A stretch of DNA of 64,000 nt. Source: a virus. Below are positions 35,621-63,312 of this stretch, piece by piece. The translations under genes and the position numbers were made by a program. The stretch spans positions 62,001 to 126,000 of the IMG/VR virus record IMGVR_UViG_3300044611_002466; one strand, given 5' to 3'. Numbering within the stretch: position 1 is the first letter of the stretch; each line of letters opens with the position of its first letter. Below the pieces are notes generated by a model that saw only the letters and a program-made list of their open reading frames with translations, was not told where the DNA came from and ran no database searches.

Positions 35621-35626
35621 CTTATG
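35621..35626 (-). promoter_or_regulatory. CATAAG promoter element, candidate
   Basis: Minus-strand CATAAG in GGTGTCATAAGC, 34 bases before GTG 35586 and overlapping the end of the endolysin gene. Presumably drives 35586-33153 (including gyrB). No terminator sits directly upstream, unlike most copies. Confidence 0.5.
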
Positions 35627-35630
35627 ACAC

Positions 35631-36374
35631 CTACCTCGGGATCTTCGTCCAGGCGAGCGCCGCAGGCAGAGCCCGCAACGGCTCTGCGAGGTCCATGAAG
35701 TACGGGTACACGCTCTCGTAGTCAGCGCCCAGCGCCCGTCGGAGCCCGGCCCGGGTGCGCTGACCGCGCACTCCGTCCGGCTCCCCGATGTCGAACCCGG
35801 CGCGCAGGAGCAGCGCCTGAACGAGCCGGACGCTCGACTGCCACTCCCCTGCCTGGCCAACGTCGAGCGCGGCGCAGAGGCAGGCCGTCTCGTATCCCAG
35901 GCGCTGATGCACACCGACCCAGTCGTTCCAGCAGTCGAAGTGCCAGCGCTCGCTCTTCTTCTCATCGGGCATGGCGATGATGGGGCTGAACCCGAAGGGC
36001 GCCCCCGTCTCCCACAGGAGGTCCACCTGTCGAGAGGCGGGCTCGTGCGGGAATGCGTTCAGGGTGGCCAAGTCGACCGCGCGGCCCGCCTGGTGGTTGG
36101 ACCTGCCGGGCTTGTTGGCGGCGGCCACCGCCGCCGGCGCCTTCCCCTTACTGCCTCCGGCCTTCCAGGCGCGGAGCTCGTCGAGGTAGGCGGTGTACTG
36201 GTCCCGAAGGACCTGCTGCTGCGGGCACGTGCGCGTCAGCGAGTTGACGACGAAGCGACCCCCGCGGGCCTCAACCGCGGCCTTCCAGCCGAGCAGCTGG
36301 CCGCGCACATCATCGGCGCAGACGGCGCCCTCACCGAGCTCGGGGATGGGAACGAGGGGACGGAAGGCGGGCAT
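35631..36374 (-). CDS. Endolysin, M15 D-Ala-D-Ala carboxypeptidase-type with PG-binding domain
   Basis: 247 residues from ATG 36374 (CCGGAG upstream). The M15 zinc peptidase core has SNHQAGRAVD (92-101; H and D ligands) and SERWHFD (141-147; H145), matching VanY/M15-type endolysins. C-terminal residues about 180-225 (VRLVQALLLRAGFDIGEPDG) look like a peptidoglycan_binding_1 repeat. No signal peptide is visible, so export would need a holin; a membrane protein gene at 37135 lies nearby on the other strand. It would cut the peptide bridges of cell wall at lysis. Confidence 0.9.
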   Translation of the reverse strand: MPAFRPLVPIPELGEGAVCADDVRGQLLGWKAAVEARGGRFVVNSLTRTCPQQQVLRDQYTAYLDELRAWKAGGSKGKAPAAVAAANKPGRSNHQAGRAVDLATLNAFPHEPASRQVDLLWETGAPFGFSPIIAMPDEKKSERWHFDCWNDWVGVHQRLGYETACLCAALDVGQAGEWQSSVRLVQALLLRAGFDIGEPDGVRGQRTRAGLRRALGADYESVYPYFMDLAEPLRALPAALAWTKIPR

Positions 36375-36445
36375 GGACACTCTCCGGAAGGCAGGGGGGC
36401 TGTACGGGGACTCGGCTTCCCTAACAGCAACCCCCACTTAAAGGA

Positions 36446-36469
36446 ACGGCCCCTCCGAGGAGGGGCCGT
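36446..36469 (-). terminator. Terminator after the 36473-37018 gene
   Basis: 11-base arms ACGGCCCCTCC / GGAGGGGCCGT; minus strand continues TTCCTTTAAG. It begins 4 bases after the stop of the preceding gene and separates it from the endolysin gene. Confidence 0.85.
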
Positions 36470-36472
36470 CGC

Positions 36473-37018
36473 TCACCACACAACGGCCTCCCGCGCTTCC
36501 GCTTCCTCGGCGCGGACTGCCTGTCCGTACAGGCCACGGAGATGATCGAGCTCAGGGTCGAGGGAGATCCACCCGCCCGGAGCCCCCAAGGTGCGCCGCC
36601 AGTAGGTGTCGTCCCAGTACCCGATGTCCGAGAAGACCGTCCCAGCCTCCTCAAGGGCACGCTCCAGGTCCGCCCCGCGCGGGATGATCACGGTCTTCTC
36701 GTAGCGGTACCGCTCGCCCCGCTCCCCTTCCACGGGAGCCACCGGCTTGAAGATCCTGACTCGTCGCATCTTCACCTCCTTCGGGGCATCCGCCGCCCCG
36801 TTGCACAACGCGTCCACGTACCAAAACCCGTTATTTTCCCTACTCTTGGCGCGGCTGACACGCTCCTGGAGCGCGTGACCCGGAATCAAGACGCGGTAGA
36901 GAACGACCACTCCTCGGTTGTCCTCCCGCTGCTCTCGGCCCGTCACCGTCCCGACCCCTCCCGGGTCGCCCTTCCTGGCCGTAACCCTGGCAGCATCTCC
37001 CAACTCAAATCGGTACAT
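36473..37018 (-). CDS. Unknown 181-residue protein
   Basis: ATG at 37018 (GGGAGCTGAA upstream); ATG at 37030 is less likely. Begins MYRFELGDAARVTARKG, as in small RNA-binding barrel proteins, with a GKVTGREQRED-like loop, and an aromatic-rich C-terminal half (YWDDTYWRRTLGAPGGW). No family recognised. Promoter CATAAG lies 24 bases upstream. Confidence 0.6.
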   Translation of the reverse strand: MYRFELGDAARVTARKGDPGGVGTVTGREQREDNRGVVVLYRVLIPGHALQERVSRAKSRENNGFWYVDALCNGAADAPKEVKMRRVRIFKPVAPVEGERGERYRYEKTVIIPRGADLERALEEAGTVFSDIGYWDDTYWRRTLGAPGGWISLDPELDHLRGLYGQAVRAEEAEAREAVVW

Positions 37019-37042
37019 TTCAGCTCCCATATGAGGTACTTA

Positions 37043-37048
37043 CTTATG
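37043..37048 (-). promoter_or_regulatory. CATAAG promoter element
   Basis: Minus-strand CATAAG in CTGGTCATAAGTAAG, 24 bases upstream of ATG 37018. The divergent plus-strand promoter starts 16 bases away, so this is a back-to-back promoter pair. Confidence 0.6.
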
Positions 37049-37063
37049 ACCAGAAGGAGCTCC

Positions 37064-37093
37064 TTGTGCGCGGCCCCCCGGCCCGGCTACACT
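37064..37093 (+). promoter_or_regulatory. Sigma70-like promoter, candidate
   Basis: TTGTGC (37064-37069), 18-base spacer, TACACT (37088-37093), in front of the plus-strand gene at 37135. Both boxes keep four of six consensus bases or better; the only canonical-looking promoter I found. Confidence 0.45.
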
Positions 37094-37134
37094 CTGCCGG
37101 GTTATCGGACGTCCGCCACAGGAGCTCGCAGTAA

Positions 37135-37539
37135 ATGTCCACCGAGACACCCACTCCCAAGCCCATGGATCCTCTTTCCGAGTGGATGCTCGAGATGACA
37201 GCAGCGCTCGAGCGGCTCTCAGCCCGTGTGCAGGCCACGGAGAAGACGGTGGACCAGCAGGGCATCACGCTGGCAGTCAACACCTCGACTGCCGCGGCCG
37301 CGGCCAGCGCGCTGTTGCGCATCGCCAAGGCGGAAGAGGATCGGCTCGTCTTCGATCGGCAGCAGACGGTCTCGCGGAAAGAGGCCGAGGCGGCGGCGAA
37401 GCTACGGTCAGACCAGTGGTTTCAGCGGTTCTGGGAGTCTCAGGCGGTGCAGCTCTTGTTCCTTGGCATCGTGTTGGCCCTCCTCCAGTATTTGGGAGTC
37501 TCTCAGATGATGAACGAGCTTCATTCGGCAACGCCGTGA
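37135..37539 (+). CDS. Coiled-coil, C-terminally anchored membrane protein
   Basis: 134 residues; CAGGAG upstream of ATG 37135. The first 100 residues are charged helices (MLEMTAALERLSARVQATEK), the end has a single predicted transmembrane helix (LLFLGIVLALLQYLGV, about 110-126), followed by a short tail. It may be a tail-anchored holin, spanin-like or superinfection-exclusion protein; proximity to the endolysin (35631) makes a lysis role attractive but unproven. Confidence 0.65.
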   Translation: MSTETPTPKPMDPLSEWMLEMTAALERLSARVQATEKTVDQQGITLAVNTSTAAAAASALLRIAKAEEDRLVFDRQQTVSRKEAEAAAKLRSDQWFQRFWESQAVQLLFLGIVLALLQYLGVSQMMNELHSATP

Positions 37540-37686
37540 GCCGAGCTCTCTTTCTGGCCCAGGAAGCGGTCTCCGCCGTACATGGAACGACGCTCCGCGC
37601 ACGAAGTACCTCCGAGACCGATGATGTCGCGTCGAGCATGGTGACGCGGCTGGTGAGGCTCAGGAGGGGTGCGGAGTTAAAAGAGC

Positions 37687-37707
37687 CCCCCTCCCGTGAG
37701 GAGGGGG
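37687..37707 (-). terminator. Terminator after the nuclease gene
   Basis: Eight-base arms CCCCCTCC / GGAGGGGG with a five-base loop, flanked by GAG/CTC; on the minus strand TTTTAACTCC follows, giving a good T-tract. Located 34 bases after the stop of the 37741-39231 gene. Confidence 0.85.
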
Positions 37708-37740
37708 AACTCAGCCCCGGCGGCCTACCGACCTGCCCTG

Positions 37741-39231
37741 TCAGAGCTCGAGCTTGAGCCGCTCGATCTGCACCCGCAGGCGCCTCGACACACCGCCGAG
37801 CTTGTCGGCCGAGATGCGCACCTCGTCCTCGATGCTCTGCACCGCGGACTTGATGGTGTCGCACTTCTTGATGACGTTCGCGATGCGCTCCGCGAGCTTC
37901 TCGGCCTCCGCGATGTCGGTATCGATCTTCGCGAAGTCGAACTCGGCAGCGTCCTTCTCCTTCGCCGCCTTGGTGATGAGCGCGGTCGCCACGGAGTGGG
38001 CCGCCTCGAGGTAGACGATCGAGAGGGGGTCGGCCGAGTCCCAGACGACGAGGACCGCGTTGCCGATGCGGCGCAGCGGCTTCATGCTGTGCGGGGCCGT
38101 GCGCTTGCTGAACACGAAGACGCCGACCTCGGCGTTCCGGTTCTTCATCCCGAGCTCGATCTCCGCCAAGGCCTTCGTGTCCCCGTAGGACTGATCCTCC
38201 TTGGCTTCATAGACGATGCGCGCACCCGCACCTACCCGGTCCGGGCCGATGGTGATGACGGCGTCGCCGACCTTGCAGTTGCGCACGGTGCCCGTGGTGG
38301 CGCCCGTGGCATCGAAGAGCTCGCCCGCGCCCTCCGCGATGTTCTCCATCTGCTGGAGGAGCTCGAACTCGAAGGCCATGCCGTGCTGGGTTCCGGTCGC
38401 CGCCACCCGCTTCTTCTCGTCGAAGCGCGCGAGCATCTCCAGGACGTTGTTCTGGAAGGCGAGCTGCTTGTCCCCCAGCTCGGTGAACTGGTCGTCGATG
38501 AGGCGACGCATGCGGGTCATGCCGCTGTCGGCGTTGTCCAAGCTGAACTGGTCCACCGTCAGCTTCTGCGCGGCCTCGACGCGTCCGACCAGCCGCGACA
38601 GCGCCGAGTCCGCGTGGTCCAGGGAGAGCTCGCGGCTGAAGTTGGCGTTGCGCTCCGTGATCGTCAGCACCAAGCGAGACAGCGCCGACTCCGGACGGTC
38701 GAGGCTGAACTCGCGGGCGACCGCGAGCCGCTGCTCCTCGATGTTCCGGGCCACCAGCGCCTCCACCTTCCCGTAGAGGCTCTCCCTCTGCTTGGGGTCG
38801 AGCATCTGGAACAGGGGGCTCCCCGTGCCCACCTGCTTGGCGATGCTCTGCGCCATGGGGCCCGTGTCCCCCAGCAGGGCCTGGATCTTCTTCTCCAAGT
38901 CCTTGACCACCTGGTCCTCGCGCTCGAGGAGGCGCAGGGCGCCCTGCTGGAAGGCCCCCGTCTGCGGGTGCAGGTACTGGGTCAGCGAGTTGCCGACCTG
39001 GGTGGCCACGCTCTGCGCGTGGGTGGTGAGCATCTCCCGCACGCCATGCACGATGGCGGCGCCCTCGCGCTTGATGGCGTCGGCGTCGATGACGCCTTCG
39101 GCGCTGCTCAGGGCGAGGACACCGATGCGCATCGCGGTGAGGGCGCGGACGCGCATTGCCTGCTCATCCACGCCGCCGCGCTCGAGGTAGCGAAGGACTT
39201 CGGGGTCGGTGATGCTGAGAACGAGGTTCAT
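37741..39231 (-). CDS. Coiled-coil protein with PD-(D/E)XK-type nuclease core
   Basis: 496 residues. The first half is long helices, including repeated LSLDHADSALSRL and FSLDNADSGMTRM units near residues 170-245. At about 285-350 a core reads GTQHGMAFEFELLQQM, GDAVITIGPDRVG, IVYEAKEDQSYGDTKAL and VGVFVFSKRTAP: a D...ExK set as in PD-(D/E)XK nucleases and RmuC-like proteins. C-terminal coiled coil. It may cleave or tether DNA; I have not proved nuclease activity. Confidence 0.6.
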   Translation of the reverse strand: MNLVLSITDPEVLRYLERGGVDEQAMRVRALTAMRIGVLALSSAEGVIDADAIKREGAAIVHGVREMLTTHAQSVATQVGNSLTQYLHPQTGAFQQGALRLLEREDQVVKDLEKKIQALLGDTGPMAQSIAKQVGTGSPLFQMLDPKQRESLYGKVEALVARNIEEQRLAVAREFSLDRPESALSRLVLTITERNANFSRELSLDHADSALSRLVGRVEAAQKLTVDQFSLDNADSGMTRMRRLIDDQFTELGDKQLAFQNNVLEMLARFDEKKRVAATGTQHGMAFEFELLQQMENIAEGAGELFDATGATTGTVRNCKVGDAVITIGPDRVGAGARIVYEAKEDQSYGDTKALAEIELGMKNRNAEVGVFVFSKRTAPHSMKPLRRIGNAVLVVWDSADPLSIVYLEAAHSVATALITKAAKEKDAAEFDFAKIDTDIAEAEKLAERIANVIKKCDTIKSAVQSIEDEVRISADKLGGVSRRLRVQIERLKLEL

Positions 39232-39500
39232 GGGGTCTCCGGGGGGCTCGGGTAGTCGGACTCGAAGAGGAAGAGGGGCTTGTACTTGTCGACGGAGGGG
39301 CCAGAGCGCACCGTCCCCACGCCGACCTGGCCGATGTAGCCGCAGAGGCAGGTGAAGAAGCTCGGAAGGTCGGGGTTGCTGTCGCAGCTGAGCAGCATGA
39401 CGGCCTTTTCACAGTCAGGGCAGTACGAGCTGCCCATCTCGGTCAAGGCGTAGCGAGGCGGTGTGGGAGGAGTCTCGATGAGTTGGAGGAGCTGATCCAT
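39228..39500 (-). CDS. Unknown 90-residue zinc-finger-like protein
   Basis: ATG at 39500. Begins MDQLLQLIETPPTPPRYALT, with SYCPDCEKAVMLLSC then CLCGYIG, a four-Cys set as in zinc ribbons. Overlaps the nuclease gene by 4 bases, so co-expression is likely. No family recognised. Confidence 0.6.
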   Translation of the reverse strand: MDQLLQLIETPPTPPRYALTEMGSSYCPDCEKAVMLLSCDSNPDLPSFFTCLCGYIGQVGVGTVRSGPSVDKYKPLFLFESDYPSPPETP

Positions 39501-39522
39501 GTCGGTCCCGTGCTTAGAGTGC

Positions 39523-39858
39523 CTACCGCAGCCGGCGAGTCCTTCTCTTTCGGCGGTAAGAGATTGGAATGGTGGAGAGGTCGAGGAGGGAGGGTCCTTC
39601 ATGCGCTTCCTGTATGAGGGTATGTTTCCAGTCGGCGGAAGTGCGCTTCAGTCGCCACTCCACACGAAGTGCGTGTCTCTTGTCGCCGATGAAATGCACG
39701 TAGACGAGCTCGACCGGCCGACGCCTGCTCGTGAAGCGGGCGCCACCGACGATCTCACCATTGTGCTGTCGTACACGTCGTTCCGGGTCGATGGAGGCGC
39801 CACAGTACAGACGTCCGTCCGCACATCGCACCATGTAGACCCACCAACCCGGGGTCAC
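39523..39858 (-). CDS. GIY-YIG nuclease (UPF0213-like)
   Basis: 111 residues from GTG 39858 (overlaps the previous stop). GIY-YIG hallmark: WWVYMV (5-10) and RLYCG (16-20), then RRVRQHN, a conserved arginine/His region, and a helical ALRVEWRLKR (with Glu). The single-domain length fits UPF0213/YhbQ-like proteins; its lineage includes repair-like nucleases. The C-terminal 25 residues are basic. Role in the phage is unknown. Confidence 0.85.
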   Translation of the reverse strand: MTPGWWVYMVRCADGRLYCGASIDPERRVRQHNGEIVGGARFTSRRRPVELVYVHFIGDKRHALRVEWRLKRTSADWKHTLIQEAHEGPSLLDLSTIPISYRRKRRTRRLR

Positions 39859-40055
39859 GTAGTGGTCCCGTCCACGTTGCACATGTAGCTGTCCAAGACG
39901 CGGATGCGCCCCGCCTTCTTGGGCGTCAGGTAGATCACGATGCGCAACGCGCGCTCCTCCGTCTCAGCGGCGGAGTCTCGGTGCGCGAGGATGACAGAGG
40001 AGACCTCTGTTGCCGTCGTGAGGTCCTCGAAGCGAACTGCGCGCCACTTCATCAT
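39855..40055 (-). CDS. Unknown 66-residue protein
   Basis: ATG at 40055 with AAGGAG five bases upstream, in an ATGA overlap. Begins MMKWRAVRFEDLTTATEV; alpha/beta. No family recognised. Confidence 0.6.
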   Translation of the reverse strand: MMKWRAVRFEDLTTATEVSSVILAHRDSAAETEERALRIVIYLTPKKAGRIRVLDSYMCNVDGTTT

Positions 40056-43116: not shown

Positions 43117-43117
43117 G

Positions 43118-45177: not shown

Positions 45178-45202
45178 GGGCGTTGCCGTGGTTGCAACGC
45201 CC
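45178..45202 (-). promoter_or_regulatory. Leader hairpin of the 45162 transcript
   Basis: Nine-base arms GGGCGTTGC / GCAACGCCC around a 7-base loop, directly after CATAAG on the minus strand and before the ribosome binding site region. The mRNA would begin in or just before this stem, so it could protect the 5' end or regulate translation. Confidence 0.55.
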
Positions 45203-45207
45203 TTATG
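45202..45207 (-). promoter_or_regulatory. CATAAG promoter element
   Basis: TGTCATAAGG on the minus strand, 39 bases before ATG 45162. TTTAGC lies only three bases upstream and the terminator hairpin directly before that: the most compact terminator/promoter junction seen. Confidence 0.65.
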
Positions 45208-45216
45208 ACAGCTAAA

Positions 45217-45242
45217 GTAGCAACGGCCTGTGCCGTTGCTAC
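45217..45242 (-). terminator. Terminator at operon junction
   Basis: Arms GTAGCAACGGC / GCCGTTGCTAC (11 bases), 4-base loop; minus strand continues TTTAGC. It follows the stop of the 45264-45608 gene by 22 bases. Confidence 0.9.
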
Positions 45243-47325: not shown

Positions 47326-47344
47326 GATTCTTCACCTCTATCCC

Positions 47345-47350
47345 CTTATG
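47345..47350 (-). promoter_or_regulatory. CATAAG promoter element
   Basis: CTCTTTTGGGCATAAGGGG on the minus strand, 19 bases before ATG 47325. It is preceded by the terminator at 47374-47391 and TATTTAGC tail. Confidence 0.7.
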
Positions 47351-47373
47351 CCCAAAAGAGGGGCTAAATAGGT

Positions 47374-50039: not shown

Positions 50040-50061
50040 GATGTCATTTACCTCCGCACTT

Positions 50062-50067
50062 CTTATG
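50062..50067 (-). promoter_or_regulatory. CATAAG promoter element
   Basis: GTTTTGGACATAAGAAG on the minus strand, 22 bases before ATG 50039. TTTCTTTAGCTC and a hairpin lie upstream. Confidence 0.7.
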
Positions 50068-50093
50068 TCCAAAACGACGCAGAGCTAAAGAAA

Positions 50094-51986: not shown

Positions 51987-52003
51987 GTTCACCTCTCGAG
52001 GTT

Positions 52004-52009
52004 CTTATG
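52004..52009 (-). promoter_or_regulatory. CATAAG promoter element
   Basis: GGGGCATAAGAACC on the minus strand, 17 bases before GTG 51986. TCTCTTAGCC follows the terminator upstream. Confidence 0.65.
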
Positions 52010-52041
52010 CCCCATTCCATCGCATTTCACGGGGCTAAGAG

Positions 52042-54730: not shown

Positions 54731-54748
54731 CACTTCACCTCCGTGATG

Positions 54749-54754
54749 CTTATG
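54749..54754 (-). promoter_or_regulatory. CATAAG promoter element
   Basis: CACGGTCATAAGCATCACGG on the minus strand, 18 bases before ATG 54730. Preceded by CATTAACCC instead of TTTAGC. Confidence 0.7.
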
Positions 54755-54778
54755 ACCGTGAGTTTCACAGGGTTAATG

Positions 54779-56063: not shown

Positions 56064-56270
56064 TCATGCCTGTCGGCTGAGATTCTCCACTCGTATCCGA
56101 AACGCGCAGTGCTCACAGGGCTCCACGTCTGGATGGCCCAGCAGCTTTGCGCAGTACCACTCTGGCGTGGGTCGGATGTCTGCCGCAGAAGAGCTGCAGT
56201 TCCCAGGTGGCGGAAGATGCACCCGGATGTGCATGTCGATGGAGCGAGAACCGCGCCGGTCAACGCCCAT
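56064..56270 (-). CDS. Unknown 68-residue protein, start uncertain
   Basis: ATG at 56270 lies inside the end of the sigma-like gene; a second ATG at 56234 is an alternative. Reads MGVDRRGSRSIDMHIRVHLP, with a Cys pair CEHCAF near the C-terminus. Called because of its position between two genes and good coding character of the C-terminal half. No family recognised. Confidence 0.45.
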   Translation of the reverse strand: MGVDRRGSRSIDMHIRVHLPPPGNCSSSAADIRPTPEWYCAKLLGHPDVEPCEHCAFRIRVENLSRQA

Positions 56271-57321
56271 CGGGCTTTCGCGGCAGCACGAAGCCACGGT
56301 TGCCGAGTCCCTCCCAGCCCATGGGAACGCCATTGGCGTCGAACCACGTCCTCGTCTCATGCGGGAAGAGTCCGTTGTTGTACTCGTGGGTTCCTTCCGG
56401 CCACGTCTGCCGGCACACATGCGCGAGCATGCCGAAGGGATGGGCGTCGGTGATCAGGACACGCTCCCGACCACTCTCGTTCACCCGCTTGTTGTAGATG
56501 TCCACGACCTCGTTTCTGAGGAACAGCTCGAACGTGAGGGCTCGTGCCGCAACGCGTCTGAGCCACTCGATCGTTTGCGGTCCCTGCACCCGCGGCCACT
56601 TGGTCTTCGCGGAGTCTCCCTCCCCACGCACCCACTGCGTCCAGTACTCGACCATCGCATCCACCGCATCCTTGCGCGTCCACACGTCGGTGGACATGAC
56701 GTTGAACACAGCGGCGACTTCACCACGTGGCACACGCGTGGGCGGGTCCAGCTCCTCGGCGGCTCGCAGCTTGTGCCGAATATCCATCTTGCAGCGCGAC
56801 ACGGTCGACGCTTGGATCTTCAGCAGCTCGGCGAGTCGCTGCGTGCACCCGCGCCCTGACAGGACCTCGTTGACGATGGTGCGCTCGACTTCGTCCAACT
56901 CGGGGAGGATTCGAGCCAGCCGCATCCCGATGTTCGTGTAGCCGCCTGAGCGCAGCGCCTCGTGCTCCCACAAGAGCGCCGTATCCGGAGCGTTCTTGAT
57001 GACGAAGCGGCGCAGCCCCCGCAGCTGCATGTGGATGTGCGTCCACAGCGTGCTGCGCCCAGGCACCCACGTCTCACACGCCACGTGAACCAGCTGCCAC
57101 GCGTACATGTTCAGACTGCTCTCTTCCACCCTGCTCGCCTTGTACTTTTCGATCTCCGCACCAACTCGCGCGGAGAAGTGCTCGACCAGCGCATCGGACA
57201 GCCCATCCTTCGTCACACTCCACACCCCCCAGACCGCAGCGTCATGCACATGCGCCAGAACGCGCGCCTTCTCTTCTTCCACTTCCATCTCTTCCACGAC
57301 CTGCTCTGACGACTGATACAT
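56260..57321 (-). CDS. Possible phage sigma-factor-like protein
   Basis: 353 residues from ATG 57321 (GGAGGTGAAG upstream). Residues about 138-187 (ILPELDEVERTIVNEVLSGR, CTQRLAELLKIQASTVSRC, then MDIRHKL) look like sigma70 region 4, with the helix-turn-helix that meets the -35 or activators. A preceding Trp/aromatic segment (about 72-112) could be region 2-like. The C-terminal 160 residues are unknown. It opens a transcript with CATAAG and is the best candidate to read that element. I could not verify region 2 by eye; a non-sigma HTH regulator is the alternative. Confidence 0.45.
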   Translation of the reverse strand: MYQSSEQVVEEMEVEEEKARVLAHVHDAAVWGVWSVTKDGLSDALVEHFSARVGAEIEKYKASRVEESSLNMYAWQLVHVACETWVPGRSTLWTHIHMQLRGLRRFVIKNAPDTALLWEHEALRSGGYTNIGMRLARILPELDEVERTIVNEVLSGRGCTQRLAELLKIQASTVSRCKMDIRHKLRAAEELDPPTRVPRGEVAAVFNVMSTDVWTRKDAVDAMVEYWTQWVRGEGDSAKTKWPRVQGPQTIEWLRRVAARALTFELFLRNEVVDIYNKRVNESGRERVLITDAHPFGMLAHVCRQTWPEGTHEYNNGLFPHETRTWFDANGVPMGWEGLGNRGFVLPRKPDGR

Positions 57322-57337
57322 CTTCACCTCCGTCACC

Positions 57338-57343
57338 CTTATG
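57338..57343 (-). promoter_or_regulatory. CATAAG promoter element
   Basis: TGCACGTCATAAGGGTGACG on the minus strand, 16 bases before ATG 57321. Preceded by TTCTTAGCTC and the hairpin at 57373-57387. Confidence 0.7.
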
Positions 57344-57372
57344 ACGTGCATTCCTTGGAGCTAAGAACAGGG

Positions 57373-57712: not shown

Positions 57713-57730
57713 GATGTTCACCTCAATCTC

Positions 57731-57736
57731 CTTATG
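57731..57736 (-). promoter_or_regulatory. CATAAG promoter element
   Basis: GTTGGTCATAAGGAG on the minus strand, 18 bases before ATG 57712. No terminator hairpin directly upstream; the non-coding region lies there instead. Confidence 0.65.
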
Positions 57737-58216
57737 ACCAACTACATCGACAAGTTCCGCAACAGCCGTAGTAGCAACGAATCGCCCAAGTCCTCGAAGC
57801 ACATGTACCCCCAGAGGGAGCAACCCATACCTGTGCAGGGAGTGTGCTGAGGGAGAGTGTGTAGATGGGAGGTGTGCGTGGTGTGAATGGTGGAAGGTGT
57901 ACATGTGCGACTGGTGGGTAGAATAGGGTAAACTACGTGTTGATGAGAAACGTAGATGGCCTCTTCTATGTGCGTTTACGCAAGAATAGCATGTATATAG
58001 CACTTCTTGTGTGTAAGAGTGGCATGTATGTGGCACTTCTTGCATATACGTGATGTCCTAAAAGTGCCTTTATTCTCACGAATACGCGCAATATAGTGTG
58101 TGGTAGACTTCGCGCGGTACCGATTTAGGGTCTTTTAAGACATGCGCTATTACGAGGACTCTTGTACATAGCCAATATGGCACTTCTTGCGCACAACACC
58201 GCTACGGGTTAATACG

Positions 58217-58291
58217 ACGACGCCACCACGGGACGCCACCCCCTTGCGAGGGCTGCGTGGTGGGAGTTGGACCCACAGTTCGCCGTTAGCT
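58217..58291 (-). ncRNA. Structured RNA candidate
   Basis: On the minus strand just after CATAAG (58297-58292): GTGGG/CCCAC stem with a 7-base loop, then CCACCACG/CGTGGTGG (58223-58230 with 58256-58263) enclosing a second hairpin with CCCTCGCAAGGGG. About 75 nt of dense structure with no ORF. A tRNA reading was rejected. Could be an sRNA, or a complex terminator. Confidence 0.4.
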
Positions 58292-58297
58292 CTTATG
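58292..58297 (-). promoter_or_regulatory. CATAAG promoter element, no gene directly downstream
   Basis: CGCGCATAAGAGC on the minus strand. No start codon with ribosome binding site follows within 100 bases; the structured RNA candidate does. Confidence 0.5.
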
Positions 58298-58429
58298 CGC
58301 GTAAATCATGGTGTTTTGCATGAATGCTGAAATGAGCGCAGATAACCCTAAAAGTGCACTAATCCTCGAAGTAGCGTGTAGGTCCTTAGGGCCAGAGGAA
58401 AGACATCTGGGTGGAAAAGGGGGCCACAG

Positions 58430-58594
58430 AGGTATCCAAGACCCCGGCACCATTTTGGTATCTCTTAAAACCGACACTTTCACAGGTATCCAAAACTCCA
58501 CCCATATTTTAGTCGTTCTTAAATGGCCCCTCCAGCTATCAATCTACGCACTCAGATATCCAAACCCTGGCATCATTTTGGTCGTTCTTAAAAC
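58430..58594. repeat. Three direct repeats of about 40 bases
   Basis: Copies at 58430-58470, 58484-58523 and 58554-58594 share AGRTATCCAA, then a C-rich segment, CATTTTGGTCG (or close) and TTCTTAAA. Unit spacing is 54 and 70 bases. A fourth partial copy (CAGGTCGTTTTAAG) is near 58631-58644. Each unit ends in an A/T-rich imperfect palindrome. Confidence 0.65.
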
Positions 58595-58662
58595 AGCGTT
58601 AAGGACGCCCCCATTAGTTCCATCCCTAAAACAGGTCGTTTTAAGATGCGGGCTAAAAGGAC

Positions 58663-58680
58663 GTGCCCCCTGCGGAGCAC
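58663..58680 (-). terminator. Terminator after the 58692 gene
   Basis: Arms GTGC / GCAC with CCCC/GGGG-type inner pairing (GTGCTCCGCAGGGGGCAC); minus strand then reads GTCCTTTTAGCCC. 12 bases after the stop at 58692. Confidence 0.75.
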
Positions 58681-58691
58681 ACCCCGGATCC

Positions 58692-58937: not shown

Positions 58938-58954
58938 TGGTTCACCTCAACGTC

Positions 58955-58960
58955 CTTATG
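58955..58960 (-). promoter_or_regulatory. CATAAG promoter element
   Basis: CAAAAGGGTCATAAGGAC on the minus strand, 17 bases before ATG 58937. No terminator directly upstream; the previous gene's stop is at 58973, 13 bases away. Confidence 0.7.
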
Positions 58961-58972
58961 ACCCTTTTGGCC

Positions 58973-59332
58973 CTACTCTTGCACCTGTACCTGGATCTTG
59001 AGGAAGTCCTTCGCGGGCATGACCCGCGAGAAGTGCTTGATGTTGGCGGCCCTGTTCGCCTCGTAGGTGCCAGTATCGGCCACCGAGCCGATACTCCACA
59101 TGCCCCGCCGGCGGTACGCATCGACCGCTTCCCGATCTCCGGTCCTGGGCGTGATTGGGAACACCTGCAGGACCTCGCGGCCGTACTTGCCAAAGACCAC
59201 GATACACCACTCATTGAGCGGCACGGAACCGCCATCCTCCTTGTCGCCGAGGGAACACAGGATGCCTCCCTCGTCGAACTTGTCCTCACCCGCTTCTTCG
59301 GCACCATCATCACTCTCGTTCAAGAACGGCAT
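58973..59332 (-). CDS. Unknown 119-residue protein
   Basis: ATG at 59332 with GGAGGTGAAG upstream. Begins MPFLNESDDGAEEAGEDKFD; acidic start, then beta-rich WCIVVFGKYGREVLQVFP and a helical end. Frame 58942-59313 on the same strand is a shadow of it. No family recognised. Confidence 0.6.
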   Translation of the reverse strand: MPFLNESDDGAEEAGEDKFDEGGILCSLGDKEDGGSVPLNEWCIVVFGKYGREVLQVFPITPRTGDREAVDAYRRRGMWSIGSVADTGTYEANRAANIKHFSRVMPAKDFLKIQVQVQE

Positions 59333-59348
59333 CTTCACCTCCGCTCTT

Positions 59349-59354
59349 CTTATG
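59349..59354 (-). promoter_or_regulatory. CATAAG promoter element
   Basis: AAATCGACATAAGAAG on the minus strand, 16 bases before ATG 59332 and overlapping the end of the 59350 gene by a few bases. Confidence 0.7.
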
Positions 59355-59835
59355 TCGATTTGACTACCACTCTTGCGGCCTCACCAGGTCGTAGTGCGTA
59401 CCCGCCATCGCGGAGCTCGGGCCACAGGTACGGAAGGTCGTTTGGGACGTCGGACCAGAACACGCCATAATGCCCCTGATCTTTGCGCAGCAGGTTTGAG
59501 CGGTGTGCGCGATGGAACCGCGCGTCCCCGAGCCACGGAGGTGCCGCCGACTCCACTTCAGGGAGGAGCTCGAGCCGTTGTCGGATCTTCTCCGCACAGG
59601 TGTCAGCGTACCCGCGCGCACTCCAGACCTCGCACACGACGAGCCCGTAGAAGCAGAGCGCGCGACGATGCCCGGACCACATGCGCGCCGCAGGATGATT
59701 GCGCCACCCGGCACCAGCGAAGCCGCCGAGTGCGTTGAGCAGCTGGAGGACTTCCACACGCTGCTTGCCCAAGCGCTGCCGGTCCAGGACAGCAGCAGAC
59801 TCGTCGAACGAGGGGTACGGAAGGAAGGTTTGCAT
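59350..59835 (-). CDS. Pyrimidine-dimer glycosylase-like protein (Pyr_excise family)
   Basis: 161 residues. MQTFLPYPSFDESAAVLDRQ, RLGKQRVEVLQLLNAL and AGWRNHPAARMWSGH are the signature of the MSMEG_6728-like Pyr_excise family, related to T4 endonuclease V (DenV). The T4 enzyme removes UV-induced pyrimidine dimers; family members may act as glycosylases or have another role. It has CATAAG upstream (59856) and a terminator. Confidence 0.85.
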   Translation of the reverse strand: MQTFLPYPSFDESAAVLDRQRLGKQRVEVLQLLNALGGFAGAGWRNHPAARMWSGHRRALCFYGLVVCEVWSARGYADTCAEKIRQRLELLPEVESAAPPWLGDARFHRAHRSNLLRKDQGHYGVFWSDVPNDLPYLWPELRDGGYALRPGEAARVVVKST

Positions 59836-59855
59836 GATAGGCCTCTAAGTACCCA

Positions 59856-59861
59856 CTTATG
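59856..59861 (-). promoter_or_regulatory. CATAAG promoter element
   Basis: GATTTTGGCCATAAGTGG on the minus strand, 20 bases before ATG 59835. TTTTAGCCC and the hairpin at 59887-59920 lie upstream. Confidence 0.75.
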
Positions 59862-59886
59862 GCCAAAATCAGCGATCGGGCTAAAA

Positions 59887-59920
59887 GGGGACCCACGGCA
59901 CAGTTGTGACGCGGGTCCCC
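59887..59920 (-). terminator. Terminator at operon junction
   Basis: Arms GGGGACCC / GGGTCCCC with an 18-base loop; minus strand continues TTTTAGCCC. Located 3 bases after the stop of the 59924-60175 gene. Confidence 0.85.
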
Positions 59921-59923
59921 GGC

Positions 59924-60175
59924 CTAATCCGAGGAGAAGCGCGTGTAGCTGGGGTCATCCCAGGGCCACACGTTCTCCCATCGACCGTCGTGCAGCATCG
60001 CCTCCTCCGTGTCGCAGTTGATCTGCCACGTCCGGAGCACGCGAAGCACGCACGAGTCACAGGTCATCTCCGACGGCTTCTTGGCCGCAGTCCGGCCCTC
60101 CTTGCCGCTGATGCGCACCCGACAGACGCACTTGTCGCCGTCGCCATGCGGATGCAGCGCATGTACGCTACCCAC
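59924..60175 (-). CDS. Unknown 83-residue protein
   Basis: GTG at 60175 overlapping the upstream stop. Begins MGSVHALHPHGDGDKCVCRV, with CVC and CDSC pairs, then aromatic (GRWENVWPWDDPSYTRF). No family recognised. Confidence 0.6.
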   Translation of the reverse strand: MGSVHALHPHGDGDKCVCRVRISGKEGRTAAKKPSEMTCDSCVLRVLRTWQINCDTEEAMLHDGRWENVWPWDDPSYTRFSSD

Positions 60176-60512
60176 CGAGCATCCTCAGGTAGTTCTCCCA
60201 GGTCACGCCTTCCGGCGTCTCCACATCGGCCTTGAACTTGAGGAAGGGCAGGGGCCCCTCGAAGTGGGCGAACTCGTCGAGCCGCGGCGGTTCGACGAGC
60301 GCCCTCATGCTCTCCACCTCCTTCGGCCCGAGGAGCGCGTTGTGACTCGAGTAGAAGGAGTGCATGTAGGGAGTCGACAAGGCCGTGTTCCAGTCCCAGA
60401 CACGACGTGCGGCCGCCGCCGGCGTGTCCCAGCCCAGGAGGACCAGGAACGCGACGGGGCTGACCGCGAGGCGGAAGCCCTCCCGACCCCAGTACCAGTG
60501 CGCCGACCTCAC
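60168..60512 (-). CDS. Membrane protein, 114 residues
   Basis: GTG at 60512 in a GTGA overlap. Predicted transmembrane helix at about 12-28 (FRLAVSPVAFLVLLGW), then an extracytoplasmic-like domain. Lies in a run of four small membrane proteins (60168-61232). No family recognised. Confidence 0.6.
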   Translation of the reverse strand: MRSAHWYWGREGFRLAVSPVAFLVLLGWDTPAAAARRVWDWNTALSTPYMHSFYSSHNALLGPKEVESMRALVEPPRLDEFAHFEGPLPFLKFKADVETPEGVTWENYLRMLGG

Positions 60513-60901
60513 AGGCCCCCCTGCTGCCCGGCCGGCAGCTTCAGCTTGGGAGCGCGGCACCCTTCGTTGCCGTAGCCCTGGAGGTTGAAGCCGGCGGCGC
60601 ACTCCACCGCGACCGAGCCGATCGCACCATCGCCCTGCGGGTAGGCGATCGTGCAGGAGACGTAGCCGTCGTTGTCGGTGTCCCACTTCGTACAGGTCAC
60701 CGACGGAGAGGGGTACTTCAACTTCTGGGCGTGCTCCAGAGCCTGACGCTCCGCCTCCACCTGGACGTCGTCGCCCTTGACCGCCTTGAGCCCCTGGCAG
60801 CTCCCGCCGAGGATGAAGAGGAAGACGAGGATGATGACGGCGACGATCGCAACTTCGATGACCGTGGCGCCCTTTCGGGCGCGGATGCGGATGGAGTTCA
60901 T
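60509..60901 (-). CDS. Pilin-like or TadE-like membrane protein with cysteine-rich domain
   Basis: 130 residues. Basic leader MNSIRIRARKG followed by ATVIEVAIVAVIILVFLF: glycine then a Glu at +5 and a hydrophobic helix, the pattern of type IV prepilin/TadE class III signal sequences. The C-terminal domain has five Cys (SVTCTKWDTDNDGYVSCTI and VECAAG, GC) and looks calcium-like (DTDNDG). Co-transcribed with two other one-helix proteins. Prepilin processing is inference; a plain membrane anchor is the alternative. Confidence 0.5.
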   Translation of the reverse strand: MNSIRIRARKGATVIEVAIVAVIILVFLFILGGSCQGLKAVKGDDVQVEAERQALEHAQKLKYPSPSVTCTKWDTDNDGYVSCTIAYPQGDGAIGSVAVECAAGFNLQGYGNEGCRAPKLKLPAGQQGGL

Positions 60902-61068
60902 GGGGTTCCTGTGGGTGCGCCACTGAGAAGGGCGACAGCGGTGTCGAGGAGACGGAAGACGAGGACGAAGAGAAAGAAGGCGCTCACGCCAGCGCCGGAG
61001 ACCACCATGATGAGGGACTCGATCTCATTCCAGCGCGTGATCTCGGTCTTGTTCGTGGTGTTGTTCAT
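60898..61068 (-). CDS. One-helix membrane protein, 56 residues
   Basis: ATG at 61068, overlapping the pilin-like gene's start region. Begins MNNTTNKTEITRWNEIES, with a helix at about 17-40 (LIMVVSGAGVSAFFLFVLVF). Very small membrane protein. No family recognised. Confidence 0.65.
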   Translation of the reverse strand: MNNTTNKTEITRWNEIESLIMVVSGAGVSAFFLFVLVFRLLDTAVALLSGAPTGTP

Positions 61069-61232
61069 GGGATCCCTGTCAGGGTGCTGAGGAGAAGGAA
61101 GCCGGCAACGAAGCCGAGGGCGGCCACGACGATGACACCTGCGCCCGTGATGAAGGCCGCCAGGATGAACGACCGCATGGCCGACAGAAGCTCCTCCGCG
61201 TAGCCAGGCTCGTCCGAGGTGTCTTCGCTCAC
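61065..61232 (-). CDS. One-helix membrane protein, 55 residues
   Basis: GTG at 61232, overlapping the previous stop. Begins MSEDTSDEPGYAEELLSAM, with a long hydrophobic stretch (FILAAFITGAGVIVVAALGF). Not recognised; operon mate of the pilin-like protein. Confidence 0.65.
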   Translation of the reverse strand: MSEDTSDEPGYAEELLSAMRSFILAAFITGAGVIVVAALGFVAGFLLLSTLTGIP

Positions 61233-61498
61233 GCCGGGTCCCCCACCCAGCTCGTCGACTCGTAGGGGGCGGCCACGGGGGTGTAGGGGGCGGCCACGGG
61301 GGCATGGTCCACGTTGAAGAGCTGCCGCACCACGGGGGGTAGGCACAGCATGTGCGCATCGGCCCCAACCACGACGTACTTGCGGCCGTCGCCGTCGGGG
61401 AGGGGGCGAATGGCCTCGACCTTGAAGCGATACTCATCGTCCCCGATGAGCCCCGAGCACACGTCGCAGGTCCGGATTGTCTGGTGAACCGTACTCAT
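61229..61498 (-). CDS. Unknown 89-residue protein
   Basis: ATG at 61498 with GGAGGTCAA upstream. Begins MSTVHQTIRTCDVCSGLIGD with a CDVC pair; a PVAAPYTPVAAPY direct repeat in the middle. No family recognised. Its leader hairpin (61508-61532) sits next to the ribosome binding site. Confidence 0.6.
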   Translation of the reverse strand: MSTVHQTIRTCDVCSGLIGDDEYRFKVEAIRPLPDGDGRKYVVVGADAHMLCLPPVVRQLFNVDHAPVAAPYTPVAAPYESTSWVGDPA

Positions 61499-61507
61499 TT
61501 GACCTCC

Positions 61508-61532
61508 GTGCACCTTGGAAAGGGCGGTGCAC
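61508..61532 (-). promoter_or_regulatory. Leader hairpin of the 61498 transcript
   Basis: Arms GTGCACC / GGTGCAC with an 11-base loop, immediately before the GGAGG site at 61503-61507 on the minus strand. May occlude or present the ribosome binding site. Confidence 0.55.
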
Positions 61533-61538
61533 ATTGTA

Positions 61539-61544
61539 CTTATG
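61539..61544 (-). promoter_or_regulatory. CATAAG promoter element
   Basis: CACGTCATAAGTACAATG on the minus strand, 40 bases before ATG 61498; the extra leader holds a hairpin. The SLOG gene stop lies inside the element. Confidence 0.7.
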
Positions 61545-61980
61545 ACGTGAACGGCATCTCGCTGACCAGCCCATCTGGCCAGACGATGAGGACCAACATG
61601 CCGCGCTTCCTCGCGTGCCGAATCGTGGCCCAGGTGCCGGACCGGAGCTCCTCCTCGAAACCACCGGGCGTCGCGAGGAGGATGTCCGATAGCGCGACGA
61701 TGCCGTGGTTCCGCTTCAGCGGAGGCCGGGGGGCGTACACCACCTCGACCCCCGCGCGTTTCTTGGCTGCGCAGTGCGCCCGCTTCTCTACGATGTCGCA
61801 GGGGTGGTGGTGCCTGCGGATTCCATGCACCGAGCAGAGGAGGTCGAAGTCGTCATCCGCACCGATGCAGTCCCCGTGGTGCGCCAGGCGAATCTTGGTG
61901 TCCGCGAGCATCAGCCCGACCTGCACCTTCTGCGCGTCGGTCATCCCTTTCTGCGTCCCTGTGAAACCTACGACGATCAT
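61540..61980 (-). CDS. SLOG-like Rossmann nucleotide-binding protein
   Basis: 146 residues beginning MIVVGFTGTQKGMTDAQ. The pattern GFTGTQKG, LAHHGDCIGADDDFD, P..PL.RN, IVALSDILLATPGG and a EEELRSGTWATIRHARK run resembles SLOG/LOG-family Rossmann proteins that bind nucleotide-sugar or ADP-ribose-type ligands. In phages such proteins may be anti-defence sensors or nucleotide enzymes. Ends in a CATAAG promoter for the next operon. Confidence 0.6.
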   Translation of the reverse strand: MIVVGFTGTQKGMTDAQKVQVGLMLADTKIRLAHHGDCIGADDDFDLLCSVHGIRRHHHPCDIVEKRAHCAAKKRAGVEVVYAPRPPLKRNHGIVALSDILLATPGGFEEELRSGTWATIRHARKRGMLVLIVWPDGLVSEMPFTS

Positions 61981-62007
61981 GCCGACCTCCTTAGCGGTGC
62001 GCCTGGC

Positions 62008-62694
62008 TCAGTGACCGAGGTCGACGAACCCGGCGATGATCTCCAGCTTTTGGCTGCTCTCCCGGGACCACTTCTCGACGCCCCGTATGATGTCCATGGA
62101 CGCGTCGTGGTAGTCCACCTCCGCGAAGACGCGCACGAGCCGCGTGGCATCCTTCGGGACGTCTTCCCCGTCGCCCGGCTCGATGCGGATCTTGAGACTG
62201 GCACCGCCGTGGATGATGGTCTCCCACTCGAAGGGCGTGTACCTCTTCGTCGACTTCTTGAGGGGGAGCTGGTTCTGCTCCGGCGTGACTGCGGCGGGCG
62301 CGGAGTCACTCAAGATGCCGCCCATCCTACTGGGGGCCGTCGGGTGCTTGAGGTTGGAGAGGAACTCCCGCGCCTGGGCGGGGGTGGCGACCCAGGTCGC
62401 CTTGTAGAGCCCCTCCACGTCCGAGGTCTTGTTGATGTAGCCGTGCCCCGAGGACAGGGCCTGTCCGTGCGGGATCCGAATCCGCACCACCGACTCCGCC
62501 GACTTGACGATGTCGGTGGCGGGATACAGGAGCTCCCGGCGGAGGAAGGTGATGGTCGTGCGGAGCTCCGTCATCTCGTAGAAGATCCTGGTCGGGCTGT
62601 AGGCCCCCAGGAGGAGGAGAAGGGATCCCAGTCGCGAGTGCACCCTGCTGGGGTGGAGCACGATATCGAGGTTGGGGGGCGTGGGGATGGCCAT
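62008..62694 (-). CDS. Unknown 228-residue protein
   Basis: ATG at 62694 with CGGAGAGC upstream. Begins MAIPTPPNLDIVLHPSRVHS; mostly helical, with a middle YINKTSDVEGLYKATWVA. No family recognised. Confidence 0.6.
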   Translation of the reverse strand: MAIPTPPNLDIVLHPSRVHSRLGSLLLLLGAYSPTRIFYEMTELRTTITFLRRELLYPATDIVKSAESVVRIRIPHGQALSSGHGYINKTSDVEGLYKATWVATPAQAREFLSNLKHPTAPSRMGGILSDSAPAAVTPEQNQLPLKKSTKRYTPFEWETIIHGGASLKIRIEPGDGEDVPKDATRLVRVFAEVDYHDASMDIIRGVEKWSRESSQKLEIIAGFVDLGH

Positions 62695-62732
62695 GAGCTC
62701 TCCGTGGTGAGTAGTTGAGTCTACCCAAGGCG

Positions 62733-62738
62733 CTTATG
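62733..62738 (-). promoter_or_regulatory. CATAAG promoter element
   Basis: ATTCACGACATAAGCGCC on the minus strand, 38 bases before ATG 62694. A small leader hairpin GTAG/CTAC (62711-62724) lies between. TTTTAGCC and the terminator at 62773-62799 are upstream. Confidence 0.7.
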
Positions 62739-62772
62739 TCGTGAATACGTCCGGTCTGTGCGGGCTAAAACG

Positions 62773-62799
62773 ACGTCGACTGCAGGAGGCAGTCGACGT
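62773..62799 (-). terminator. Terminator at operon junction
   Basis: Arms ACGTCGACTGC / GCAGTCGACGT (11 bases) with a 5-base loop; minus strand continues CGTTTTAGCCC. Located 3 bases after the stop of the 62803-63153 gene. Confidence 0.9.
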
Positions 62800-62802
62800 G
62801 GC

Positions 62803-63153
62803 TCATCGACTCTGCGATCTCGTCCACCGGACGATCGCCGCAAGGCCCTCTTCCATCTCCGCCGTGTAGAGGCGGTTGCGGCACGACTCCCACAGCGCCG
62901 GGACCACAGCCCCCACCTCACGCGCCGACCAGGAGCAGACCGGGTCTCGGGAGTCTGCGCGACGCAAGTGGACCCAGAGCCCCTCGGTGGGGCGCTGCGT
63001 CAGCTCGAGGTAGAACACGCAGTCGTCGTCAAGACCGAGCGCGATCTCACCCTGCATGTTTCCCAAGGGGGAGACATGCCCGGCGTCGACGGCGTCCTTC
63101 AGAACCTCCAGCAAGGACCGCAACTCGTGCGGGCCGTTCAGGAAGGACTTCAC
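62803..63153 (-). CDS. Unknown 116-residue protein
   Basis: GTG at 63153 in a GTGA overlap. Begins MKSFLNGPHELRSLLEVLKD; helical with a Trp/Cys middle. No family recognised. Confidence 0.6.
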   Translation of the reverse strand: MKSFLNGPHELRSLLEVLKDAVDAGHVSPLGNMQGEIALGLDDDCVFYLELTQRPTEGLWVHLRRADSRDPVCSWSAREVGAVVPALWESCRNRLYTAEMEEGLAAIVRWTRSQSR

Positions 63154-63287
63154 GGCCTTCCCGCGACGTGGTCGGCCTTCCACTGTACGATCAGCTGGTC
63201 CACCTTCACCGAGTCCAACAGGACCCAGAGCGCCAGGAAGGCTCCGATGGCGGCCATGAGAATGAACCCCACAAGCTCGTCTTTCAT
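63150..63287 (-). CDS. Unknown membrane peptide, 45 residues
   Basis: ATG at 63287 with GGAGGTG upstream. Begins MKDELVGFILMAAIGAFLAL; one helix at about 5-24, charged tail VQWKADHVAGRP. Found by reading the leader of the 63153 gene; overlaps that gene by 4 bases. No family recognised. Confidence 0.6.
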   Translation of the reverse strand: MKDELVGFILMAAIGAFLALWVLLDSVKVDQLIVQWKADHVAGRP

Positions 63288-63306
63288 TGAACACACCTCC
63301 AGTCCT

Positions 63307-63312
63307 CTTATG
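63307..63312 (-). promoter_or_regulatory. CATAAG promoter element
   Basis: ACGCCGTCATAAGAGGAC on the minus strand, 19 bases before ATG 63287. TTTTAGCCC and a hairpin lie upstream. Confidence 0.75.

What the first reader, a model, noticed from the sequence alone, without database searches (positions are those of the whole stretch)
35621..63312. Recurrent CATAAG element at operon starts: a candidate phage promoter class
On the minus strand CATAAG (often TTTGGNCATAAG or GTCATAAG) occurs 13-40 bases before the first start codon of at least 14 transcription units between 35.6 and 63.3 kb (starts 35586, 37018, 45162, 47325, 50039, 51986, 54730, 57321, 57712, 58937, 59332, 59835, 61498, 62694, 63287), plus candidates at 23400 and 58292. 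At 65% GC the hexamer is expected about a dozen times by chance in the whole window over both strands, but the copies here sit almost all in intergenic sequence, on one strand and at a fixed place relative to terminators and ribosome binding sites. No -35 box at constant spacing accompanies it, which recalls the -10-only late promoters of T4 (established for T4, inferred here).
Basis: seen in the sequence. Interest (0 to 1): 0.85.

Follow-up and report, generated by a model that had tools for sequence, protein, structure and literature searches.

The report
Phage promoter class with matching sigma
The repeated CATAAG word is the -10 box of a set of two-part promoters in a large tailed phage that also carries its own bacterial-type RNA polymerase and sigma factor, so the phage may bring its own machinery for reading one half of its genes.

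Summary
The CATAAG observation is real. All 17 copies in the window, and 29 of 30 in the 188-kb record, lie on one strand; 28 of 30 are intergenic. CATAAG is the strongest de novo intergenic hexamer, and three relatives keep it at orthologous operon starts.

One sub-claim is wrong: there is a -35-region element at constant spacing. Aligned sites give A(-32)A(-31) ... G(-14)N CATAAG(-12..-7) ... T(-1)G(+1). This is bacterial, sigma-type geometry, not the -10-only T4 late type. The motif lies on the strand opposite the virion genes, which suggests early or middle rather than late expression.

Outside the window the phage encodes a fused beta-beta' RNA polymerase (NADFDGD present) and a sigma70-family factor. 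Cultured relatives Salmonella phage Arash and Vibrio phage D69 encode an RNAP and an orthologous sigma, and have GGTATAAG/GTTATAAG on their early strand. Cobetia phage Carin-5 has an RNAP but lacks both that sigma and the motif.

Best model: phage sigma plus phage RNAP, perhaps virion-packaged, reads these promoters. The promoter class is near certain; its reader and timing are inferred. I found no published description.

The parts
35614..35649 (-). CATAAG promoter (hexamer 35621-35626); GTG start 35586, leader can pair GGTGCA with TGCACC
   Evidence: (counterparts G002 8245, G003 29976)
37036..37071 (-). CATAAG promoter (hexamer 37043-37048) before gene start 37018
   Evidence: counterpart G002 10286
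45195..45230 (-). CATAAG promoter (hexamer 45202-45207) after hairpin-TTTAGC terminator; leader hairpin GGCGTTGC/GCAACGCC; start 45162
47338..47373 (-). CATAAG promoter (hexamer 47345-47350) before start 47325
50055..50090 (-). CATAAG promoter (hexamer 50062-50067) after hairpin-TTTAGC terminator; start 50039
51997..52032 (-). CATAAG promoter (hexamer 52004-52009) before start 51986
54742..54777 (-). CATAAG promoter (hexamer 54749-54754) before start 54730
57331..57366 (-). CATAAG promoter (hexamer 57338-57343) before the sigma-like gene, start 57321
56260..57321 (-). 353-aa protein, residues 26-137 (envelope 21-193) match the phage sigma profile; candidate second, CATAAG-driven sigma
   Evidence: E 2.6e-9 in the phage protein set; no Pfam hit and no meaningful PDB hit (best E 0.51), no ortholog found; single-sequence model uninformative
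57724..57759 (-). CATAAG promoter (hexamer 57731-57736); ATG 57712
   Evidence: (counterpart G002 26310)
58285..58320 (-). CATAAG promoter (hexamer 58292-58297) inside a 0.97-kb non-coding stretch; followed by T-arm-like hairpin
   Evidence: similar layout at G002 26844 and G003 18278
58948..58983 (-). CATAAG promoter (hexamer 58955-58960) before start 58937
59342..59377 (-). CATAAG promoter (hexamer 59349-59354) before start 59332
59849..59884 (-). CATAAG promoter (hexamer 59856-59861) after hairpin-TTTTAGCC terminator; start 59835
   Evidence: (counterpart G002 29716)
61532..61567 (-). CATAAG promoter (hexamer 61539-61544); 8-bp leader hairpin; start 61498
62726..62761 (-). CATAAG promoter (hexamer 62733-62738) after terminator; leader hairpin; start 62694
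   Evidence: (counterpart G002 35658)
63300..63335 (-). CATAAG promoter (hexamer 63307-63312) after terminator; start 63287
   Evidence: (counterparts G002 36302, G003 15796)
23393..23428 (-). CATAAG promoter candidate (hexamer 23400-23405) before GTG 23356
   Evidence: no ortholog row

Best explanation
CATAAG is the -10 hexamer (-12 to -7) of a class of bipartite, sigma-type promoters with -35-region element A(-32)A(-31), G(-14), T(-1) and start G(+1) about 7 nt after the hexamer. They drive the operons on the strand opposite the virion genes (mostly small genes of unknown function; early or middle class). Transcripts either begin almost at the Shine-Dalgarno sequence or begin with a hairpin. 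Most likely reader: the phage-encoded sigma70-family factor (record 152493-153368) on the phage-encoded fused beta-beta' RNA polymerase (record 14161-23067). Both genes lie on the virion-gene strand, so the enzyme is probably made late and carried into the next cell. Shown: motif, geometry, conservation, presence of polymerase and sigma, co-occurrence of sigma type and motif in a small set of phages. Inferred: promoter activity, start site, sigma-motif pairing, use of the phage core, packaging, timing.
For: Non-random, one-strand, intergenic placement. Aligned sites show fixed -32/-31, -14, -1 and +1 positions (per genome); G(+1) and T(-1) also hold in 25 long leaders where Shine-Dalgarno cannot explain them (P = 0.001 and 5e-9). 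The motif is kept at orthologous leaders with proteins as little as 30% identical. RNAP: the beta' half matches bacterial beta' at E 1e-42, NADFDGD present. Sigma: Sigma70_r3; the profile of 8 phage homologs hits only sigma factors among the 60 chains shown (best RpoS 1.6e-16); the structure search's top matches include sigma-S, SigA and WhiG chains. Orthologous sigma in G002, G007, Arash and D69, and those phages have NATAAG or G-N-Y-ATAAG on the early strand. Carin-5 has an RNAP but neither this sigma nor the motif bias. In Arash and D69 a different motif, TAAAATA, precedes rpoC (Arash), the rpoB and rpoC operons (D69), structural genes and endolysin, consistent with late RNAP synthesis.
Against: No transcript ends measured. 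Arash and D69 carry a second, more RpoD-like sigma (gp196, VPHD69_0246) with canonical region 2.4 residues, so sigma-motif pairing there is ambiguous. Replication genes at 8-35 kb of the window mostly lack CATAAG. No proteomic evidence found for packaging; Arash's record does not label its RNAP genes structural. No alpha-subunit gene was found, though none was specifically sought.
Confidence: 0.55

Rival explanations
1. Same promoters, but the phage sigma redirects the HOST core RNA polymerase; the phage RNAP serves the other (late) class.
For: Phages that lack an RNAP use their own sigma this way (PMC7824862). Geometry is ordinary sigma-type.
Against: RNAP genes sit with late genes and behind the late-type motif in Arash and D69, so the phage enzyme would have to act within the same cycle, after its own late synthesis. 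Arash, D69, G000, G002 and G007 carry this sigma and an RNAP together.
Confidence: 0.25
2. In relatives with two sigmas the other, RpoD-like sigma (gp196 type) reads YATAAG, and in G000 a divergent protein such as the 353-aa sigma-like gene at 56260-57321 does.
For: gp196 and VPHD69_0246 keep the canonical WW..Q region 2.4 signature; the 353-aa protein matches the sigma profile.
Against: No gp196-type sigma was found in G000, G002, G003 or G007 by sequence, yet all have NATAAG promoters. The 353-aa gene has no ortholog in G002 or G003.
Confidence: 0.12
3. Host RNA polymerase with a host sigma factor reads CATAAG.
For: The -10 core ATAA and extended -10 G(-14) are tolerated by many bacterial sigmas (general knowledge).
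Against: G at -7 and no TTGACA-type -35; a sigma70-type scan finds 3 sites against 2.5 expected. The same GNYATAAG consensus occurs in phages of Salmonella, Vibrio and unknown high-GC hosts, which a host-specific sigma would not predict.
Confidence: 0.05
4. An RNA-level element (processing site or translation enhancer) rather than a promoter.
For: Close spacing to the Shine-Dalgarno in many copies.
Against: Conserved positions extend to about -35, upstream of any transcript start implied; distance to the start codon is bimodal (16-24 or 34-40 nt); long leaders fold into hairpins that begin after the motif.
Confidence: 0.02
5. T4-type -10-only late promoter.
For: Short AT-rich box about one turn upstream of the likely start.
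Against: Conserved -35-region A's; opposite strand to virion genes; hexamer differs from the T4 TATA box.
Confidence: 0.01

Closest known systems
T4 late promoters (gp55/gp33 with host core)
   Same: short AT-rich box about 10 bp before the start; phage-encoded specificity factor
   Different: T4 has an 8-bp TATA box and no -35 conservation (PMC2988020); here -31/-32 A's, G(-14) and CATAAG, on non-virion genes, and the phage has its own RNAP
Early (vRNAP) promoters of phiKZ, AR9 and phiR1-37
   Same: genome-wide motif centred near -10, start about 6 nt downstream; phage encodes a multisubunit RNAP (PMC7598289, PMC5312081)
   Different: those motifs are about 10-nt AT-rich boxes and their RNAPs are split, alpha-less and lack a sequence-recognisable sigma70-family factor; here a bipartite sigma-type promoter, a fused beta-beta' and a sigma70-family protein
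mReC phages (Weinheimer and Aylward 2020, PMC7481178)
   Same: tailed phages encoding beta and beta' recognisably similar to cellular ones, with NADFDG
   Different: that paper's text contains neither 'promoter' nor 'sigma'; phylogenetic membership not tested here
Extended -10 / alternative-sigma bacterial promoters (sigma70, sigma28, ECF)
   Same: -35/-10 layout, G at -14, purine start
   Different: CATAAG with G at -7; -35 element reduced to AA at -32/-31; strict hexamer, few variants
Salmonella phage Arash, Vibrio phage D69
   Same: RNAP plus orthologous sigma; GGTATAAG / GTTATAAG on the early strand
   Different: T instead of C at -12; a second sigma; a visible late-strand motif TAAAATA

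Membership tests
T4 late promoter | 8-bp TATA box (TATAAATA type) | tested here: not met
   Hexamer is CATAAG, few variants
T4 late promoter | no conservation at -35 | tested here: not met
   A(-31) 22/28, 27/33, 16/20
T4 late promoter | drives virion genes | tested here: not met
   Motif on the strand opposite terminase, tail sheath and other virion genes
T4 late promoter | gp55, gp33, gp45 homologs | tested here: inconclusive
   Not seen in Pfam/PHROG scans, but PHROG lists were truncated
phiKZ/AR9 vRNAP early promoter | genome-wide motif centred near -10 on early operons with start about 6 nt downstream | tested here: inconclusive
   Geometry fits; start site and timing not measured
phiKZ/AR9 vRNAP early promoter | split beta/beta' RNAP without sigma70-family factor | tested here: not met
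   Fused 2968-aa (G000) or 2103-aa (G002) protein, and a sigma70-family factor
sigma-type bipartite promoter | -10 hexamer plus -35-region element at constant spacing | tested here: met
sigma-type bipartite promoter | initiation about 7 nt after the -10 hexamer | not testable with these tools
   T(-1)G(+1) enriched, but no transcript ends
sigma70-family protein (record 152493-153368) | similarity to sigma regions 2-4 | tested here: met
   Profile of 8 homologs: the 60 PDB hits shown are all sigma factors, aligned across regions 2-4; Sigma70_r3 over cut-off in G000
mReC phages | full beta and beta' similar to cellular enzymes, NADFDG motif, tailed-phage genes | tested here: met
mReC phages | RNAP groups with the mReC clade in a phylogeny | not tested
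   No tree built

The most novel reading that the evidence does not exclude
A phage lineage carries a complete bacterial-type transcription initiation system of its own: a beta-beta' core plus a sigma70-family factor, made late and packaged in the virion. It reads a dedicated bipartite promoter class (A-A ... G-N-Y-ATAAG) on the early strand, with a second sigma switching to a TAAAATA late class in some members.
Probability: 0.4. Interest if true: 0.82.

Novelty: new variant of a known kind. Interest (0 to 1): 0.66.

Why it matters
Reviews of large phages describe two opposite strategies: bring an RNA polymerase, or bring a sigma factor to use the host's (PMC7824862, PMC7598289). This lineage has both, and its promoters look bacterial. 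The conserved GNYATAAG class gives these uncultured RNAP-encoding phages a readable transcription map, and cultured relatives (Arash on Salmonella, D69 on Vibrio) make sigma-promoter pairing, core identity and virion packaging directly testable.

Tried and rejected
DNA-level search of the phage collection: no match. Rfam and tRNA scans of the window: none. Late (+ strand) motif in G000/G002/G003: only the reverse complement of CATAAG from divergent regions stands out; host-like TA[CT][AG]NT hexamers reach P 0.005 in G000 only, so not claimed. Second motif among minus-strand starts without CATAAG: none. General avoidance of CATAAG in coding sequence: only in G000. Small Sigma70_r4 hits in G002 and G003 read as ordinary helix-turn-helix (XRE-like) proteins on inspection. 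Structure of the 353-aa sigma-like protein: pLDDT 38, not used. First gene calls missed genes crossing piece borders, giving a truncated beta'; corrected with overlapping pieces. Carin-5 as a further positive case: negative, which became a useful control. Paper searches for CATAAG or TATAAG phage promoters: nothing relevant in this open-access library.
Full report
Setting. The window is bases 62001-126000 of a 188,230-base IMG/VR virus record, called G000. It is a tailed phage with a contractile sheath (tail sheath), a gpA-type terminase and a family A DNA polymerase, about 65% GC. It matches no phage in the annotated collection at DNA level. Close relatives in IMG/VR: G002 (182,777 bases), G003 (115,144) and the fragment G001. 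More distant: G007 (201,921 bases; terminase 49% identical).

Observation. All 17 CATAAG in the window are on the minus strand; 5.96 +/- 2.54 are expected on both strands and no shuffle reached 17. Record-wide the count is 29 minus, 1 plus, with 28 of 30 intergenic in a record 93.4% coding by my own simple gene caller. In G002 it is 37 to 0, in G003 26 to 1 in the opposite orientation, in G001 5 to 0; the more distant, different G004 shows no bias. CATAAG is the leading intergenic hexamer de novo in all three genomes. In the 35-64 kb part 13 of 19 minus-strand genes with at least 60 nt of upstream gap have it, but only 1 of 8 in the 0-35 kb part, where replication genes lie.

Geometry. Aligning 64 sites of three genomes shows positions fixed relative to the hexamer: A at -31 (53 of 64), A at -32 (38), C at -35 (39), G at -14 (59), T at -1 (37), G at +1 (45), taking CATAAG as -12 to -7. 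The -31 A holds in each genome alone (G000 P = 1.5e-11). G(+1) could reflect the Shine-Dalgarno sequence in short leaders, so I tested the 25 long leaders separately: G 16 of 25 (P = 0.001), T 18 of 25 (P = 5e-9). A weight-matrix scan finds very few non-CATAAG variants near starts, so the hexamer is read strictly.

Leaders and terminators. Leaders fall in two groups: start codon 16-24 nt after the hexamer, or 34-40 nt. Over 44 longer or uncalled leaders the best stem starting near the inferred 5' end averages 6.2 bp against 4.8 in shuffles; 28 have 6 or more against 11.3 expected. One leader hairpin (CTGGC...GCCAG) is kept in three phages. Upstream, a hairpin followed by TTTTAGCC often closes the preceding operon: of 27 early-strand intergenic TTTAGC sites, stems average 8.1 bp against 4.2 shuffled and 17 have CATAAG within 64 nt downstream. 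The generic terminator scan, which wants 5 T's, misses these.

Conservation. At orthologous genes the hexamer stays while surrounding sequence diverges, with protein identities down to about 30%. CATAAG also faces away from the RNAP gene in G000, G002 and G003.

Machinery. Outside the window the record encodes a 2968-aa fused beta-beta' protein (record 14161-23067, +) with NADFDGD; the G002 ortholog is 2103 aa, and G003 has it as two genes. The beta' half matches bacterial beta' at E 1e-42. It also encodes a sigma70-family protein (record 152493-153368, 291 aa): Sigma70_r3 and PHROG sigma hits. A profile of eight phage homologs hits sigma factors of known structure across regions 2-4, best RpoS 1.6e-16, all 60 shown being sigmas. 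The model of the G002 protein (pLDDT 71, pTM 0.38) has sigma-S, SigA and WhiG chains among its best structural matches; TM-scores are low (about 0.2-0.3), so this is supporting rather than independent proof, and the sequence profile carries the assignment.

Comparative test. Salmonella phage Arash and Vibrio phage D69 encode RNAP and an orthologous sigma (Arash gp10, E 1e-16; D69 10995-11684, E 2e-11). Their early strand is enriched for GGTATAAG (17 against 0.07 expected) and GTTATAAG (16 against 0.17), with the same T(-1)G(+1) geometry. G007 has NATAAG with the conserved A at -31 in 14 of 16. GNYATAAG counts, forward/reverse strand: G000 0/28, G002 0/34, G003 17/0, G007 11/1, Arash 5/41, D69 19/51. 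Two RNAP-encoding phages without such bias are controls: Rhizobium phage RHph_TM30 21/21 (its sigma content was not tested) and Cobetia phage Carin-5 10/10. Carin-5 has beta, beta' and an annotated sigma in one cluster, but that protein shows no similarity to the sigma family here. The set is small, so this co-occurrence is suggestive only.

Late side. In D69 and Arash, TAAAATA is enriched on the virion strand (D69 14 plus, 3 minus; Arash 7 plus, 1 minus within 90 nt of starts) and precedes tail and structural genes, endolysin, Arash rpoC, and the D69 operons with rpoB and rpoC (with annotations; the D69 RNAP genes are annotated hypothetical and identified by tblastn and by position). RNAP is thus probably a late product, which suggests packaging for the next infection. 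Both phages carry a second sigma (gp196, VPHD69_0246) that could serve that class. In G000 no late motif was found. A 353-aa protein directly behind CATAAG at 57338 matches the sigma profile (E 2.6e-9) and might be an early-made second sigma, but it has no ortholog and no usable model.

What is shown and what is inferred. Shown: motif, its statistics, geometry, conservation, presence of RNAP and sigma, co-occurrence of sigma type and motif in a small set of phages. Inferred: promoter activity, exact start, sigma-motif pairing, phage core, timing, packaging. My estimates: promoter class about 0.95; read by the gp10-type sigma about 0.65; on the phage core rather than host core about 0.6.

Literature. 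The mReC paper (PMC7481178) describes such RNAPs but its text has neither 'promoter' nor 'sigma'. Reviews set phage RNAP and phage sigma as opposite strategies (PMC7824862; PMC7598289). I found no description of CATAAG or TATAAG as a phage promoter in the library, which lacks most subscription journals.

Noticed in passing
window 57722-58691: Non-coding stretch of about 0.97 kb, at the same relative place in G002 (26.3-27.2 kb) and G003 (17.9-18.8 kb), with repeated AAGAACGACCAAAATG-like and GGATACCTCTGTG-like units and, behind a CATAAG, a T-arm-like hairpin (GGGTCCAACTCCC / GGGTTCGACTCCC / GGGTTCGATTCCC). No Rfam hit; ARAGORN finds no tRNA in G000 or G002. Candidate structured RNA.
   Followed up: partly
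window 56260-57321 (-): 353-aa sigma-like protein directly behind a CATAAG promoter, without detectable ortholog.
   Followed up: partly
record G000 14161-23067 (L064:1662-10568): Fused beta-beta' RNAP interrupted by apparent inteins, one right at the catalytic NADFDGD and one in the beta' half; absent from the G002 ortholog (2103 aa).
   Followed up: partly
Vibrio phage D69 and Salmonella phage Arash, + strand (L092-L095, L087, L089-L091): TAAAATA motif upstream of virion, endolysin and RNAP genes: candidate late promoter class.
   Followed up: partly
G000 136309, G002 46634, G003 5367: Conserved block with GATAAG instead of CATAAG followed by GTGTTGAAACTGC in intergenic sequence.
   Followed up: no
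early-strand intergenic regions, G000/G002/G003: Terminator-like hairpins followed by a conserved TTTTAGCC rather than a long T run.
   Followed up: partly
sigma proteins, region 2.4: The gp10-type sigmas lack the canonical WW..Q residues of region 2.4, whereas the gp196-type sigmas keep them; possibly linked to C versus T at -12.
   Followed up: no
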